Shown here in pieces: positions 3 to 55,132 of a stretch of DNA of 64,000 nt. Each line of letters opens with the position of its first letter. The first letter of the stretch is position 1. The notes beneath the pieces were generated by a model. The model saw nothing but the letters and a program-made list of their open reading frames with translations. It was not told the origin of the DNA and searched no databases. Where the stretch lies: positions 1 through 64,000 of the forward strand of contig DAIDHM010000033.1 of NCBI GenBank assembly GCA_027459705.1, given 5' to 3'. The position numbers and the translations under genes are program-made. The DNA comes from Ktedonobacteria bacterium. Its GTDB lineage: Bacteria > Chloroflexota > Ktedonobacteria > Ktedonobacterales > JACDGC01.

Positions 3-1070
3 GAACCACAGCTTGTGCCGCCAATCTGGGCAAATCTCCACCATTATGACGCCGTGCGCGATGGCTATGCCGACGCGCTGACCGGGTTGCTGCGGGCGTT
101 GGGAGTACCGGGCGGTCCGAAGACTGTCTCGCCGTTCCTGGCGGCGTTGCTCCCGGGAAATGGCCAGGTTGTCAGCCCTGCTTCACCAGTCCCGCCACCC
201 CGCTCCACTGCTTCGCCGCACTTCCCGGGCCTGCCGCCAGAGAAACTGCCGCCCCGGCTCGTTCAACTGGGCTTCACTGGCCAGGCGCGCGCCGTCGAGG
301 GGCGACCGGTGGATGTCATTCTCCCGCCGCTCTGTCATGTCGATGCGGGACCGTTCTGGATGGGGAGCCGGAACGATCCCCAGGCGAGAGATGATGAACC
401 CTGGCACCAGGTGACGACGGGCGCGTATGACATTGGCACGTACCCGGTGACGGTGGCGGAGTATGCCTGCGCGGTGCGGGCGGCGATAGTGAAAGAACCA
501 GATGGGTGGTCCCGTCAGCAATGGAAGGGTTTGGACCACCCGGTGGTCAATATCAGGTGGCAGGATGCGGTTGCTTATGTCGCATGGCTGGCACGGATGA
601 CAGGCGAACCCTGGCGATTACCGACCGAAGCGGAGTGGGAAAAAGCGGCGCGGTGGGACCAGGCCAATCAGGTGGCGCGTATCTATCCCTGGGGAGATGC
701 ATGGGATCCTCAGCGGGCGAATGTGGATAATTCAGGCGGGAAGTCCTTGAGTAGTCTGATCCTAGGAGCACGAACCACGGCGGTTGGGTATTATGCGCAG
801 CAAAGCGATGCCAGCCCGTATGGTTGCCACGATATGGCGGGAAATGTCTGGGAGTGGACCAGCAGTATCTATAATGCGTCCGCCTATCAACCAGATAATA
901 AAAGAGAAAATAACAGTGATAGAACATCATGGCGAGTGCTGCGGGGCGGTTCGTGGGTCAACCTCTCCAGGTTCGCGCGCGCGGCGGACCGCGGCAGGTA
1001 CAGCGTAGTCATCTACCTCGGCAACTGTGGTTTTCGCTTGGTTCGTGGGGTGGGGGCTGGCTCTCACTAA
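3..1070 (+). CDS. FGE-sulfatase (SUMF1/C-type-lectin fold) protein, 5' truncated by the window edge; C-terminus looks like a DGR variable region
   Basis: Motifs GPFWMGS, YDIGTYPVTVAEY, WRLPTEAEWEKAAR, YPWGDAW, GCHDMAGNVWEWTSS, RVLRGGSW...GFRLVR. Reading frame is open to the left edge (EPQLVPPIWANL...), so the gene starts outside the window. Confidence 0.9.
   Translation, partial: EPQLVPPIWANLHHYDAVRDGYADALTGLLRALGVPGGPKTVSPFLAALLPGNGQVVSPASPVPPPRSTASPHFPGLPPEKLPPRLVQLGFTGQARAVEGRPVDVILPPLCHVDAGPFWMGSRNDPQARDDEPWHQVTTGAYDIGTYPVTVAEYACAVRAAIVKEPDGWSRQQWKGLDHPVVNIRWQDAVAYVAWLARMTGEPWRLPTEAEWEKAARWDQANQVARIYPWGDAWDPQRANVDNSGGKSLSSLILGARTTAVGYYAQQSDASPYGCHDMAGNVWEWTSSIYNASAYQPDNKRENNSDRTSWRVLRGGSWVNLSRFARAADRGRYSVVIYLGNCGFRLVRGVGAGSH
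948..1046 (+). other. Putative DGR variable region (VR) in the FGE domain
   Basis: GGSW-VNLSRFARAADRGRYSVVIYLGNC-GFRLVR: of 19 variable-looking codons, 15 are NNC (GTC AAC CTC TCC TTC GAC GGC TAC AGC GTC ATC TAC CTC GGC AAC), as expected from AAC template codons mutated at A. Confidence 0.7.
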
Positions 1071-27037: not shown

Positions 27038-27847
27038 TTACGGCTGGGTCGCTGTCTGGGTATGTGTGGCGATGCTCATGATGGACCATTGTTGATGTGC
27101 CTGCGTGAGTTGCACGATATCCACCGTGGGATGCCCGCTGGACCCATGCCGCGTGACGAGGACGGAGATGGTCGCGCTCGATCCTTGCTGTTGGCTGTCG
27201 CCCAGGGTATAGGTGGCTATCCCGCCGCCTACCTGATCAAGTTGCAGGTAGCGTTGGATGAAAGCATCACGCGATTCTGCCTGTTGTGCGGCGGGTGCGA
27301 GCAGATCATACGCGTGCGTATAATCCTGATGGCTGAGCGCCGTATAGAACGCAGTGACCGTGGTGCGCGGGTTGCCGCTGGGTGCAAGTGACGCATTGTT
27401 GGTCGTGAAGGCATAGGCCGCGCCGCCCGCGACCAGCGCGATGAAGATCCCCAGGGCAAGTGCCAACAGGACGAACTGGCGGCGAGATATCCATGGGCGG
27501 CGGGCCTGGCGAGCCAGTTCGCTACTGCGCTGGAGATCTGGTCGGGGGGGACGATATCCCTTCGGCAGCGCGCTCGCCGGTGGGATGTAGCCGGGTGGCA
27601 ACGAACGATCGGGCCGAGGGATCGGTCGATGCAGGGCTGGATCCAGTGAGGATCCGATAGTGCCGGACCTTCTGGCCGTTCTGGTGTCGAGCGCTGAGCG
27701 CGTCTCATTATCCATGGATTGCGCCTCCTGGGAAGCGTCGCCCATCCTGGGCCGGACGCGGCATGGTACCATACCTGAAGAATCCATCGCGTTTAGGGCT
27801 GACGGTTGAGTCTTGTGCTCATCCACAGTATACCGAGAGCACACCAT
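27038..27847 (-). CDS. TM-anchored protein with NTF2-like/DUF4878-like domain, paralog-like to 26001..26930 (start uncertain)
   Basis: FVLLALALGIFIALVAGGAAYAF TM; VTAFYTALSHQDYTHAYDLLAPAAQQAESRDAFIQRY. Confidence 0.7.
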   Translation of the reverse strand: MVCSRYTVDEHKTQPSALNAMDSSGMVPCRVRPRMGDASQEAQSMDNETRSALDTRTARRSGTIGSSLDPALHRPIPRPDRSLPPGYIPPASALPKGYRPPRPDLQRSSELARQARRPWISRRQFVLLALALGIFIALVAGGAAYAFTTNNASLAPSGNPRTTVTAFYTALSHQDYTHAYDLLAPAAQQAESRDAFIQRYLQLDQVGGGIATYTLGDSQQQGSSATISVLVTRHGSSGHPTVDIVQLTQAHQQWSIMSIATHTQTATQP

Positions 27848-49973: not shown

Positions 49974-51068
49974 TCAGTCGCTGGGCGGTGGTGGCGCGGT
50001 CGATTGCCGCACGATCAGGCGGGTCGTGAGGAAGGTGTGATCACGGCGCAAGGGTACTGCATCCTGCAGTTCATGGAGCAGTCGCTGCATGGCCGTAATG
50101 GCCTTCTCAGCGATCGGTTGTTCGATGGTCGTCAGGGGAGGATTCGTAGCGGCAGTTACTGGTATACCATCAAAGCCGATGATCGAGATCTCGCCCGGGA
50201 CGCGGATCCCCAATTCATGGCAAGCGTGCAATGCGCCGATCGCCAGCGCGTCGCTCATTGCGAGGATCGCCGTCGGTCGCGGGTGTGTCTCCGTCAGCAA
50301 GCGTCGCGTCGCCGATGCACCGCTCTCCGCATCCGAATGTGTCTCAATGATGATCGGGGTGATGGCGCCGAGGCCGCGCCGATATCCCGCGAGTCGCTGG
50401 GCTGGCACATAGTAGGTCCCAGAGCCGATCGCGGGGTGCGTCTCGAAGGAGAGGATCGCCACGCGCTGATGCCCCAGTTCGCGCACATGATCCGCGGCCA
50501 GCACCGCACCACCCTCGTCGTCAACCTGGACGCTGGACCAGTGATCATTCGGGGCGCTATCAACCAGCACCAGGGGGATATGGCGTTGCTCCAACGCGCC
50601 CATCGCTGGCAGGTCAGGCGCGATGCCCAGCGTCACTACGCCATCTACGATCGCCGCCTGCGCCATCGCCAGGCTCGATCCAAGCAGTGGCGGCAGGAGG
50701 GTCAAGGCGAGGCCATGCCGGTCACACATCTGCCCCAGGCCACCGACAAAGAGCGCCATGAATTGATCGGCGAAGGCCGTCTCGATTGGCTCGACCATCA
50801 GCAGGCCAATCGCGCCCGAACGGCGTGTGGTCAACATTCGCGCGACGGGATCAGGCGCGTAGCCCAGTGAATCCGCGATACGGAGAATACGAGAACGCGT
50901 CTCCGTGGAGAGCTGTTCTGGCGAGTTATAGGCAAATGAGACCGCGGCGCGCGAAACTCCCGCTGCTTTGGCAACGGTGGCCACGGTCACATCGCGGCGT
51001 TGGCGCGTGCGCCGTCGTTGCCCGGCATTGTCGTCCTCGATCGGCGTGCCACTGGTGCTCAACGTCAT
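49974..51068 (-). CDS. LacI family transcriptional regulator
   Basis: VTVATVAKAAGVSRAAVSFAYNSPEQLSTETRSRILRIADSLGYAPDPVARML HTH; periplasmic-binding-protein-like C-terminus. Confidence 0.95.
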   Translation of the reverse strand: MTLSTSGTPIEDDNAGQRRRTRQRRDVTVATVAKAAGVSRAAVSFAYNSPEQLSTETRSRILRIADSLGYAPDPVARMLTTRRSGAIGLLMVEPIETAFADQFMALFVGGLGQMCDRHGLALTLLPPLLGSSLAMAQAAIVDGVVTLGIAPDLPAMGALEQRHIPLVLVDSAPNDHWSSVQVDDEGGAVLAADHVRELGHQRVAILSFETHPAIGSGTYYVPAQRLAGYRRGLGAITPIIIETHSDAESGASATRRLLTETHPRPTAILAMSDALAIGALHACHELGIRVPGEISIIGFDGIPVTAATNPPLTTIEQPIAEKAITAMQRLLHELQDAVPLRRDHTFLTTRLIVRQSTAPPPPSD

Positions 51069-51169
51069 GTGGTTCTGTTCCTTCTCAGCAAAAGCCAGCG
51101 TTCGTCTTCAGCATCGCATGCAGTGTCAATGTTGCGTACCATCTCGTAACAAAGGAGTAACAAACACGT

Positions 51170-51580
51170 CTAGGCGCCCATAAGCGCCCGATGCAGATCT
51201 GATTGCCAGCCACTCCCTTGTGGGTCAGAAGCGTCGATGATCGGATCGGCATAATCAAAAGGCTGGAGGCGGTAACTTTTGTCGAGGCGCAAATTGATCA
51301 GTCTGCGGGCCAGCGGTTGTCGCGCGCGAAATGCATCCGCGAGCATCGAGAGATACGCGGCCTGCTCCAGGGTCATCCAATAGGATTGCGAGGTAGCCGC
51401 CGTGCAGATCCGCAAGAGGGTATCCGCTTGCGCGAGCGCCGCCTGGATCTGCGCGCGCTGGGCGGCACTGATGTTTTGGCGCGGCGGCATCCAGTTGGGT
51501 ACCCTCCAGGCCGTCAAAAGTTGGCTGATGCTCATGACGCGCCCGACATCCGCCTCGTCATAGCTGATGAAGACAGGCAT
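51170..51580 (-). CDS. Solo TIR-like domain protein
   Basis: PVFISYDEADVGRVMSISQLLTAWRVPNWMP...QAALAQADTLLRICTAATSQSYWMTLEQAAY; GGGAGGG RBS. Confidence 0.75.
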   Translation of the reverse strand: MPVFISYDEADVGRVMSISQLLTAWRVPNWMPPRQNISAAQRAQIQAALAQADTLLRICTAATSQSYWMTLEQAAYLSMLADAFRARQPLARRLINLRLDKSYRLQPFDYADPIIDASDPQGSGWQSDLHRALMGA

Positions 51581-51592
51581 GTAAGACCCTCC

Positions 51593-53401
51593 CTAGGTAT
51601 TGAGCACGTACAGGATGGGCGCGCTTGACAGGAACGCCAGCCCGTTGGCTACTGGTCGCCCCCCACTCGGAAAATCTCCCGATAAGGCGATCGAGACTCC
51701 GCTGACCGGGGCAAGGAAGTAGGAAACCAATGTCCCATCCTGCGTCCGCAGACCGATAAGCACTTCGACCCCTTGCTGATTGCCATCGGTCGAGATGCAG
51801 CCGAGCGTGAAATAGACAGTATCACCAATGACGGTGGCTGGCTCGAAGTTCGCAACAACCACGGCATTGTGCAGTTGAAATGGGATATTCAGCTGTAGCG
51901 GATCGACCTGCCAGAGCAGGTGGCCATCGGTCGCGTCAAAGGCGAACACGCGTCCCCCTTTGAACGCTAACCCATCCGTCACGCCGCTCTGCGCGAAGAT
52001 CCTGCTCTGCGCGTAGGTAGGTTGACTCATGCAGGTAAATTCTTGGAAATCCGTATTGGGTTGTGCTGGCGAAAGGCTCTTCCAGCGTAAGGTCCCCCTG
52101 GCGGCATCATACGCATAATAATGATTATCGGGACTGCCTACCACAACCAGACCATTGAAGACGAGCGGCGCGGCGATGACGTATTGTCCTGGTAGCGTGC
52201 CACTGCCAGGGAGCTGCAATGACCAGCGCACTTTGCCCGTCACAGCATCGAGCGCGTAGAGCTTGCCGGGGTTGGTCACCACGTAGAGCATGCCACTGGC
52301 ATAGACTGGCATTGGATAATTCGGATAGAATTCAGAACCTCCATGAGGATCCAGGCTCACTGGCTGCCAGCGTGCCGTTCCATTCAAGCGATACGCATAG
52401 ACTGATCCATTGCCCATAAAATAGATCGTATTGTCCGCAATGAGCAAATCGGAAGCGTTACCATTTACTGTACTGATGGGCGCACTCTGCCAGAGCAGAT
52501 TGCCCGACGTTTTATCCAGAGCAAGCAAGACAAAGGCATTGCTCGCCAGAGCATTCGTCGTGATATTGCCAATGAGATACACCACATTCTGATACACCTG
52601 GATGATCATCGCGTTAGATAAGGTCGTGATCGACGAAGTCTTAGAAGGAAAGAGCCAGAGAACTTTGCCATCTTGCGGAGCCAGGGCTTTCACGGCCAAT
52701 CCAGAATTCGTTGCCGCATACAGGGCGTCCATATCTTGAGCCAGACCTACACGCTGATCACCACCAAAAGCAGTCTCATCCGCTGAGAAGTTAAAATCAT
52801 AATGCCAGCGTTGTGCTAGCGCTTTTGGGTCACTGGCGATTGACTGAGGCGTGGTTGCTGGTTTGAGGGCAGCAACGGTGTGGGGCGGTGCGGCAAAATA
52901 AAATCGTGCGGCGAGGACAGTGGTGGCGGCCGCCACAAGACTAGCCGCTCCAATGGCAATCGCCGTGCGCCGACTGACTCGTGGTTGCGGAGTATAGCCT
53001 AATGCCTCGCGCAACGCCCTCAACCAGGCGGGACGTTCCATGCTCGTTGCATCGATGACCATCTCCGCGCGCGCCGTGGCATCAAACACCAGGCCGGGAG
53101 TGAGGGCGAGATGGATGATGCGGCGTGGGTGGTTGGGGAAGGCGTGCTGCAAGCCGCGCACCGCCTGCAATTCGCGGTACATCCAATATGATCGTTCCGC
53201 GGCGGCGGTCGCGACGCGCAACAACAGATCATGCTGTTCTAACGCTTGCTGAATCTTATCCGCGAACCGCTGACCAGGATCCAGTTCTTGCAGATCAAAC
53301 CAGTAGGTGATCTGCCAGGCATCGAGCGCCGCGAGCAGGGGCTGGCAGATCGCGTTGTCTTCGTGGGCATGGCTGATGAATACCTGGCCGTTGCCGAACA
53401 T
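51593..53401 (-). CDS. TIR-like domain - TM - PQQ-type beta-propeller protein
   Basis: GQVFISHAHEDNAICQPLLAALDAWQITYWFDLQELDPGQRFADKIQQALEQHDLLLRVATAAAERSYWMYREL; VSRRTAIAIGAASLVAAATTVLAARFYF; blades such as LYALDAVTGKVRWSLQLPG, YYAYDAARGTLRWKSL. Confidence 0.9.
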   Translation of the reverse strand: MFGNGQVFISHAHEDNAICQPLLAALDAWQITYWFDLQELDPGQRFADKIQQALEQHDLLLRVATAAAERSYWMYRELQAVRGLQHAFPNHPRRIIHLALTPGLVFDATARAEMVIDATSMERPAWLRALREALGYTPQPRVSRRTAIAIGAASLVAAATTVLAARFYFAAPPHTVAALKPATTPQSIASDPKALAQRWHYDFNFSADETAFGGDQRVGLAQDMDALYAATNSGLAVKALAPQDGKVLWLFPSKTSSITTLSNAMIIQVYQNVVYLIGNITTNALASNAFVLLALDKTSGNLLWQSAPISTVNGNASDLLIADNTIYFMGNGSVYAYRLNGTARWQPVSLDPHGGSEFYPNYPMPVYASGMLYVVTNPGKLYALDAVTGKVRWSLQLPGSGTLPGQYVIAAPLVFNGLVVVGSPDNHYYAYDAARGTLRWKSLSPAQPNTDFQEFTCMSQPTYAQSRIFAQSGVTDGLAFKGGRVFAFDATDGHLLWQVDPLQLNIPFQLHNAVVVANFEPATVIGDTVYFTLGCISTDGNQQGVEVLIGLRTQDGTLVSYFLAPVSGVSIALSGDFPSGGRPVANGLAFLSSAPILYVLNT

Positions 53402-53434
53402 AGCAGCCTCCGTTCTTCATGGATGGATAGGGGG

Positions 53435-55132
53435 TTACGGATTGATGCCGATGACATGATTTTGCGCGTCGCCGATGGCAAAAACACCACCAAGCACATA
53501 GGGACCGCTCACCGTGCCACGCTGGGCAGTCGGTGTGGATGGCAGTTGATATGGCCAGCGCCGTACCCCGGTGACGAGGTCAATGGCACTGAGGGTGTCG
53601 CCAGCGGCAACTGCGACGAGATTGCCATAGACGACTGGCTGATAGTTGATGACGGCATACTGGGTTCCGGCATCAAATTTTTCTTCGGCCCCGGCGAACG
53701 TTCGCCAGTAATAGGTGCCATGTTGAGCGTCGAGCGCCCAGAGATACCCGGAGGCATCACCGATATAGATGATGCCATTGTCAATGGTGGCAGGCGCGAT
53801 GAAGGGATTGCCACAGGCAAGCTGCCACCGCATTGCGCCAGAGTGCGCGTCGAGCGCGATGAAGGTGCCGTCGAGCGCGCCAACATACACGGTATGCGCG
53901 TCGACCACCGCCGTGCTGACGACGACGCTGGGAAATGGGTAACGCCAAATCTGGGTGCCGTCAGCGGCATTGAGGCAGTAGAATGCATAGGATCCACCGA
54001 CATAGACGCGTCCATTGGCATACGTCACACTGGGGTGAGGCGTCCCGGTTCCGACAACGACGGCCCAAAGGTTTTTGCCGGTCGTCAGGTCGAAGGCACT
54101 GGCTGACCAGATACCATTCACTGGAAAGATACAGAAGAGGGTGTTCCCCGCAACCGAGACCCGACCAGCAGGGCCAATAAAGTTTGGATTGGGGAATATC
54201 ACGGGGATATGAGTGCGCATCGTCTGGTCGCGCGCGCTGAGCACATTCAGATAGACTGAGTTGCCGCCATCTTCGGTATCATAAAACGTGAGCACGTTGC
54301 CATCAGTATATGGCTGCGGAACCAGATCGGTTGTACCAGTGCCATTCACGATGATATTCTGGTACTTTGTGGAAGTCCAAAGGGTATGGTGTTGCGCGTC
54401 GAGGGCCATGATGGTGTTCTGGGCAAAGGCATAGAGAATTCCATCACCACTCGCGGCGAGTCCAATCGATGGGAAATAGGCATTGGGGTCCGTACCTGGG
54501 GTCTGGCTTACCGCGATGGTCCAGGCTGGTTGCCCACCAACCGTATCACCAGGTCCAAAGGTGGGGACGGCTTTGGCGGCAGCCCTGGCATCGCTCAAGG
54601 CTTTGGCATTGCGGAGGAAGAAAGTTCCCGCCGCGCCACCGGAAACTAACGTTACCAGGCTCGCGGCGCCCAGCGCCAGCGCCGCCCGCCGACTGATGCG
54701 CCGCGCGGGGGTCGCGACGCCGATGGCACGCGCGAGTTCATCCAACCAGAGCGCGCGGGTCTTCTGTGATGTATCGATGAAAAGCGTTGCCTTGTCGAAA
54801 GTCTCACGTATATACCGGGTATCCAGGATGATGTTGACGAGGGCCCGCTGCCGACGTCTCCGCTGGTGTTGATCCTCCGCCTGGAGTTCGGTGAAATAGC
54901 GCAACTCTGCAGACATCAGCGCGGAATCGGCGGTGGCGAAGCTACATAGTCGCAGACAGACTTCACATTGGCGTAAAGCCGCCTGCTGTTGATCGCTGAG
55001 GTGGTCATCCGCGCCCAGGTGACGAGGCGATTGGGCGTACGTGACCTCCCAGGCGTCGAGCGCCGCTGTCACGATATCGCCGTCGCGCGCATCTTCTGGT
55101 GCGAAGCTGACATAGACGAGCTTTCCAGCCAT
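53435..55132 (-). CDS. TIR-like domain - TM - PQQ-type beta-propeller protein (paralog of 51593..53401)
   Basis: KLVYVSFAPEDARDGDIVTAALDAWEVTYAQSP..LRQCEVCLRLCSFATADSALMSAEL; ISRRAALALGAASLVTLVSGGAAGTFFL; blades FIALDAHSGAMRWQLACG, LWALDAQHGTYYWRTF. Confidence 0.88.
   Translation of the reverse strand: MAGKLVYVSFAPEDARDGDIVTAALDAWEVTYAQSPRHLGADDHLSDQQQAALRQCEVCLRLCSFATADSALMSAELRYFTELQAEDQHQRRRRQRALVNIILDTRYIRETFDKATLFIDTSQKTRALWLDELARAIGVATPARRISRRAALALGAASLVTLVSGGAAGTFFLRNAKALSDARAAAKAVPTFGPGDTVGGQPAWTIAVSQTPGTDPNAYFPSIGLAASGDGILYAFAQNTIMALDAQHHTLWTSTKYQNIIVNGTGTTDLVPQPYTDGNVLTFYDTEDGGNSVYLNVLSARDQTMRTHIPVIFPNPNFIGPAGRVSVAGNTLFCIFPVNGIWSASAFDLTTGKNLWAVVVGTGTPHPSVTYANGRVYVGGSYAFYCLNAADGTQIWRYPFPSVVVSTAVVDAHTVYVGALDGTFIALDAHSGAMRWQLACGNPFIAPATIDNGIIYIGDASGYLWALDAQHGTYYWRTFAGAEEKFDAGTQYAVINYQPVVYGNLVAVAAGDTLSAIDLVTGVRRWPYQLPSTPTAQRGTVSGPYVLGGVFAIGDAQNHVIGINP

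What the first reader, a model, noticed from the sequence alone, without database searches (positions are those of the whole stretch)
51593..55132. Two paralogous TIR-TM-PQQ-propeller receptors in one operon: candidate undescribed sensing/defence system
Seen: both proteins have an N-terminal TIR-like domain, a conserved S-R-R-x-A-x-A-x-G-A-A-S-L-V segment leading into one TM (twin-Arg-like, positive-inside), then a long PQQ-type propeller. Genes are 33 bp apart with GGAGG RBSs. Both keep a Glu in the position expected for TIR NADase catalysis (SYWMYRE, SALMSAE). Inference: cytoplasmic TIR with an extracytoplasmic propeller sensor, i.e. a Toll-receptor-like topology, duplicated to sense two ligands or to heterodimerise.
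Basis: partly seen in the sequence, partly recalled or inferred. Interest (0 to 1): 0.75.

Follow-up and report, generated by a model that had tools for sequence, protein, structure and literature searches.

The report
Paired Toll-like membrane TIR receptors
In a few Ktedonobacterales bacteria, a small operon encodes two or three sister proteins built like animal Toll receptors (a signalling TIR domain inside the cell, one membrane pass, a propeller-shaped sensor probably outside), and one partner of the pair has lost its enzyme residues, which points to an active/inactive receptor pair for which I found no published description.

Summary
On the minus strand, genes A (53435-55132) and B (51593-53401) each encode TIR, one membrane helix and a BamB/PQQ-type propeller; a third gene, C (51170-51580), is a TIR alone. 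Tandem arrays of the same family occur in five other Ktedonobacterales genomes (6 of 47 in the order), always as two or three adjacent genes with unrelated neighbours. A, B and C are old paralogues, not recent local duplicates (AU p=0.0017); C is a truncated relative of the third gene of the three-gene arrays.

The interpretation needs a correction. B keeps Ser, Asp, Trp and Glu of the TIR NADase site (AbTir S140, D167, W204, E208). A keeps Ser and Glu but lacks Asp and Trp, and its three orthologues lack all four. The pair looks like an active plus a pseudo-enzyme TIR. Arg-Arg is invariant in all 14 propeller proteins just before the helix, while [STN]RR precedes an internal helix in only 2 of 70 background ORFs; a Tat-like signal-anchor would put the propeller outside. 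Ligand, NADase activity and anti-phage function are untested. Ten searches of an open-access library found no description of this architecture.

The parts
53435..55132 (-). Gene A: TIR (about residues 1-140) - Arg-Arg + membrane helix (about 148-175) - BamB/PQQ-type propeller (about 200-565). TIR keeps Glu but lacks the Asp and Trp of the NADase site (predicted pseudo-enzyme).
51593..53401 (-). Gene B: TIR (1-135) - SRR + membrane helix (about 144-167) - BamB/PQQ-type propeller (about 200-602). TIR keeps S10, D36, W73, E77 (AbTir S140, D167, W204, E208).
51170..51580 (-). Gene C: soluble TIR-only protein (136 aa), 12 bp behind B; relative of the third TIR-TM-propeller gene of the three-gene arrays, without membrane helix and propeller. 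Keeps Ser, Trp and Glu; Asp position is Pro.
54616..54694 (-). Gene A: S-R-R motif (R148-R149 counted from the 55132 start) and the hydrophobic stretch behind it
52901..52975 (-). Gene B: S-R-R motif (R144-R145) and the hydrophobic stretch behind it
51069..51169 (-). 101-bp gap between C and the following same-strand gene (LacI-type regulator, 49974-51068), which is not seen next to the arrays of relatives

Best explanation
The operon encodes a membrane receptor complex of two paralogous single-pass proteins. Each puts a TIR domain in the cytoplasm and, through an internal Tat-like (Arg-Arg) signal-anchor helix, a BamB-type beta-propeller outside the membrane. B is the catalytic subunit (TIR NADase residues kept); A is a degenerate partner that senses or regulates; C is a soluble TIR that may act as enzyme or adaptor. 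Ligand binding or envelope disturbance at the propellers would bring the TIRs together, and B would consume NAD+ or make a cyclic ADP-ribose signal. Defence against an invader or a surface contact is the most likely use, because patchy TIR cassettes with changing neighbours are typical of conflict systems (general knowledge). Shown: gene anatomy, homology, co-conserved tandem arrays, residue pattern. Inferred: topology, pairing, NADase activity. Guessed: ligand and defence role.
For: Domains: Pfam TIR_2 and PQQ_2; AF2 models with TIR strand/helix order and a propeller, pLDDT about 76; propeller fold relatives BamB, YxaL, tetrathionate hydrolase. Active site: a profile of non-A TIRs hits solved bacterial TIRs (AbTIR, 7uxr, 4c7m, 3h16), pairing W and E with those of 7uxr and D36 with the Asp of AbTIR; S, W and E invariant in the 12 non-A TIRs; S140A, D167A, W204A and the E208 mutant of AbTir lose NADase activity (PMC11374754). 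A clade: D and W lost in 4 of 4, E and S lost in 3 of 4. Pairing: A then B adjacent in 4 of 4 genomes that have A; 6 of 6 genomes carry adjacent arrays; A, B and C as one clade rejected, p 0.0017. Topology: RR invariant in 14 of 14 at 39% mean column identity; [STN]RR before an internal helix in only 2 of 70 other ORFs (82 counted, 12 of them this family), one of the two being a distant TIR-TM-PQQ protein of G012; the TAT_signal model reaches one member just below its cut-off; TatC in all 21 genomes tested; Pro/Thr-rich stalks after the helix in a second TIR-TM-PQQ protein of the same genome and in two same-clade TIR-TM proteins of G008. No shared non-TIR neighbour.
Against: The membrane-helix region has pLDDT below 50 and moderate hydropathy (1.5-2.0; G16_1 falls below the cut-off), so the anchor is inferred. 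R151 of AbTir, needed for its NADase activity, is not conserved in any member. Tat models do not match most members. No PADLOC system match beyond generic TIR hits, no recognised defence genes next to it in the window, no effector found. Nearly all genomes with it are MAGs.
Confidence: 0.5

Rival explanations
1. TIRs act as non-enzymatic scaffolds: the receptors recruit soluble TIR proteins (C or others of the roughly 25 TIR proteins of this genome) by TIR-TIR contact, as animal Toll receptors recruit MyD88, and the signal is carried elsewhere.
For: A-type TIRs lack the active site yet are retained; C is a free TIR in the same operon; R151 of AbTir is not conserved.
Against: S, W and E are invariant in the 12 non-A TIRs, which a pure scaffold would not need; a free C was seen only in this genome.
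Confidence: 0.2
2. Housekeeping envelope or nutrient sensing, not defence: the propeller reads cell-wall or polysaccharide state and the TIR tunes NAD+ metabolism or gene expression.
For: BamB/YxaL-type propellers are common envelope or secreted proteins; a LacI-type gene lies 101 bp downstream on the same strand.
Against: Patchy presence (6 of 47 genomes in the order) with different neighbours in each; the LacI gene is not next to the arrays in relatives.
Confidence: 0.2
3. The propeller is cytoplasmic and the hydrophobic stretch is only a linker or a membrane-association helix: an intracellular TIR sensor like TIR-WD40 proteins.
For: Hydropathy is moderate; helix confidence is low; the same genome has a TIR-WD40 protein without any membrane helix.
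Against: Invariant RR directly before a hydrophobic stretch in all 14; fewer Lys/Arg in the propeller than in the TIR; stalks in similarly built proteins.
Confidence: 0.1

Closest known systems
Bacterial TIR NADases (AbTir and relatives; PDB 7uwg, 8g83, 7uxr, 3h16)
   Same: TIR fold; B and C keep Ser, Trp and Glu of the active site, B also Asp; profile match at about 4e-5 to 5e-4
   Different: The solved chains carry no propeller; here the TIR is fused to a membrane helix and a propeller, comes as a pair, and the R151 position is not kept
Thoeris ThsB and other defence TIRs (CBASS TIR-SAVED, retron-TIR, short-Argonaute TIR)
   Same: TIR domain; weak PADLOC matches of B to TIR parts
   Different: No STALD (ThsA-type) match in the six genomes (its controls were silent), no such partner gene beside the arrays; membrane receptor layout
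Animal Toll-like receptors
   Same: Inferred layout: TIR inside, one membrane pass, repeat-built ectodomain outside
   Different: Reverse order in the chain (TIR at the N-terminus), propeller instead of leucine-rich repeats, apparently catalytic TIR in B; analogy, not membership
Kinase-propeller proteins of the AfsK type
   Same: N-terminal signalling domain and C-terminal propeller (propeller part matches the AfsK model)
   Different: TIR replaces the kinase; score far below the family cut-off
NTPase-centred conflict systems of multicellular bacteria (PMC7159879, PMC8195603)
   Same: TIR and beta-propeller modules used in multicellular prokaryotes; some systems have extracellular domains
   Different: Built round NTPases or GTPases; the passages I read do not describe TIR-TM-propeller pairs without an NTPase (papers not read in full)

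Membership tests
TIR domain superfamily | TIR sequence profile and flavodoxin-like strand/helix order | tested here: met
   B above the Pfam cut-off, A and C below it but homologous to members; AF2 models of A and B
TIR NADase | Catalytic Glu in WxxxE | tested here: met
   Met by B and C. A has the Glu without the Trp; A's orthologues have neither
TIR NADase | Further residues needed in AbTir: S140, R151, D167, W204 | tested here: inconclusive
   B keeps S, D and W, not R; A keeps only S
TIR NADase | NAD+ cleavage | not testable with these tools
   needs an enzyme assay
Thoeris | Partner ThsA (SIR2-SLOG or macro effector) | tested here: inconclusive
   No PF18185 match in six genomes, but the controls were silent too; no recognisable partner near the arrays
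Toll-like receptor (as homologue) | Extracellular leucine-rich repeats, C-terminal TIR | tested here: not met
   Propeller and N-terminal TIR
Tat substrate / signal-anchor | [ST]RRxFLK-like motif before a hydrophobic stretch | tested here: inconclusive
   RR invariant in 14 of 14; of 8 segments scanned, TIGR01409 matched one at 15.2 bits (cut-off 16.7) and one at 11.2
PQQ-dependent dehydrogenase | Match to quinoprotein dehydrogenase models at cut-off | tested here: not met
   46-59 bits against a cut-off of 480 for TIGR03075

The most novel reading that the evidence does not exclude
A bacterial counterpart of Toll-type surface receptors: obligate hetero-pairs of an NADase TIR and a pseudo-TIR, exported through an internal Tat signal-anchor, on a TIR chassis whose sensor part is exchanged (propeller, unassigned stalked ectodomain, beta-helix), so that bacteria detect phage or rival cells at the surface before entry.
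Probability: 0.25. Interest if true: 0.85.

Novelty: new variant of a known kind. Interest (0 to 1): 0.55.

Why it matters
The bacterial TIR defence systems known to me (Thoeris, CBASS-TIR, TIR-Argonaute, retron-TIR) act inside the cell. A family in which a TIR is wired through the membrane to an external sensor, in co-conserved active/inactive pairs, would show that Toll-like surface sensing also exists in bacteria, and it gives a small, testable operon. The active/pseudo-enzyme split predicts which subunit is the enzyme and which the regulator.

Tried and rejected
Recent tandem duplication of A, B and C in this genome: rejected. Both TIRs catalytic: not supported for A. A conserved non-TIR partner or effector gene beside the arrays: none seen in five relatives (one contig, G024, is only 5.5 kb). 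PQQ enzyme: rejected. Thoeris effector search with STALD: nothing, but uninformative because the controls were silent. Promoter and terminator scan: no more sites than in shuffles. Single-protein scan of genome contigs found nothing and the 14-row alignment was too diverse; the B-type alignment gave named records. Base composition does not mark the operon as foreign (57.8% G+C against 59.9 +/- 2.2% in 4-kb windows). Ten literature searches found no description of this architecture; the library is open-access only, so absence there is weak evidence.

Full report
What is there. The minus strand carries A (55132 to 53435), B (53401 to 51593) and C (51580 to 51170), with gaps of 33 and 12 bp and strong ribosome sites. 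The finding's coordinates cover A and B and leave out C. A and B are TIR - membrane helix - PQQ_2 (BamB-type) propeller; C is a TIR alone. AF2 models (pLDDT about 76) show the TIR order of strands and helices and a propeller; the helix region itself is of low confidence. Foldseek puts the propellers with BamB, YxaL and tetrathionate hydrolase.

Where else. Relatives lie in one order. The named public records of the same contigs are two Ktedonobacterales MAGs (one a complete chromosome, CP126532.1) and two Centralia MAGs filed as 'Chloroflexi' and 'Proteobacteria' (taxonomy). Of 47 genomes of the order, 6 carry the family, in two family groups (f1: 1 of 6; f4: 5 of 12), always as adjacent arrays: A-B in G010, G018, G024 and (with C) the window; three full genes in G008 and G016. 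In 400 genomes of the phylum, matches to the TIR profile at 1e-15 or better are confined to 13 genomes of this order. Neighbouring genes differ at each site and none is shared.

Descent. Trees put A with the first gene and B with the second gene of the two-gene arrays, and C with the third gene of the three-gene arrays (97/99 support); a clade of A, B and C alone is rejected (p 0.0017). So the pair is old and kept together, and C is a shortened third member that ends behind its TIR; only 101 bp separate it from the next gene, so no propeller remnant is left.

Active site. A profile of the non-A TIRs finds AbTIR, 7uxr, 4c7m, Cat1 and others in the PDB. At AbTir positions S140, D167, W204 and E208 (mutants of all four lose NADase activity; PMC11374754), B and its orthologues have S, D, W, E. 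C has S, P, W, E. A has S, S, L, E; its three orthologues have C, L/F/M, Q/A, A. AbTir R151 is not conserved in any of them. The same paper reports that the Trp is not needed in a second TIR (TcpC), so loss of Trp alone would not prove inactivity; loss of the Asp with it, and of the Glu in the orthologues, makes the pseudo-enzyme reading the likely one. The alignment in the BB-loop region of A is loose, so which residue replaces the Asp is less certain than its absence.

Topology. Arg-Arg directly before the helix is invariant in 14 of 14 propeller proteins at a mean column identity of 39%; in the linker around it Arg and Lys occur 29 to 8. Of 82 ORFs in the held DNA with one helix starting between residues 100 and 300, [STN]RR sits before it in 14: 12 of this family, one a distant TIR-TM-PQQ protein of G012 (TRRTLL), one at window 27038-27847. 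The motif resembles a Tat signal that is internal and uncleaved; the Tat model reaches 15.2 bits in one member (cut-off 16.7), and TatC is present in all 21 genomes tested, so Tat use is plausible but not shown. A separate TIR-TM-PQQ protein in the same genome (contig C186) and a tandem pair in G008 have Pro/Thr-rich stretches behind the helix, as extracellular stalks do.

Chassis. The same TIR clade (99/99) is also joined to a beta-helix (G008, G018; no helix anchor before it), to a stalked ectodomain without a Pfam match in a tandem pair in G008, and to a bare C-terminal helix in G018. This looks like one TIR module with exchanged sensors.

Mechanism and limits. The best reading is a surface receptor pair with a catalytic B and a regulatory A, which cleaves NAD+ or makes a cyclic ADP-ribose signal when the propellers meet their ligand. 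Anatomy and residue pattern are shown; topology, pairing and catalysis are inferred; ligand and defence role are guesses. No downstream effector was identified.

Noticed in passing
genome G000, e.g. C7:12136-12498, C32:8892-9236, C210:16202, C161:7164, C215:9213, C179:3056: The 4.6-Mb host genome has about 25 TIR_2 matches, joined by eye to FGE-sulfatase-like, TPR, WD40, vWA-like or NACHT-like regions: a large TIR repertoire.
   Followed up: partly
window 15-1070 (+): FGE-sulfatase domain protein at the window start; its N-terminal part resembles the stretch behind the TIR in a TIR-FGE protein of the same genome (L028), so it may be the end of another TIR protein. PMC10907252 (abstract only) describes diversified antigen sensors in conflict systems of multicellular bacteria.
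   Followed up: partly
L035:1429-3279 (G000:C186): A separate, distant TIR-TM-PQQ protein in the same genome, with a long Pro/Thr-rich stalk between membrane helix and propeller and no SRR motif.
   Followed up: partly
L121:7370-9834 (G008): Tandem pair of TIR-TM-stalk proteins with an ectodomain that has no Pfam match; their TIRs belong to the same clade as the window's.
   Followed up: partly
L122:7182-8345 (G018), L168:757-1923 (G008): TIRs of the same clade fused to a right-handed beta-helix, without a clear membrane helix before it.
   Followed up: partly
window 27038-27847 (-): Single-helix protein with SRRQF (Tat-like) some 120 residues in; the only other such case in the window.
   Followed up: no
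L127 (JAJPIU010000240.1): The record is filed as 'Proteobacteria bacterium' although genome search places the contig of the same length (G010:C227) in the window's order: probably a misnamed MAG.
   Followed up: no
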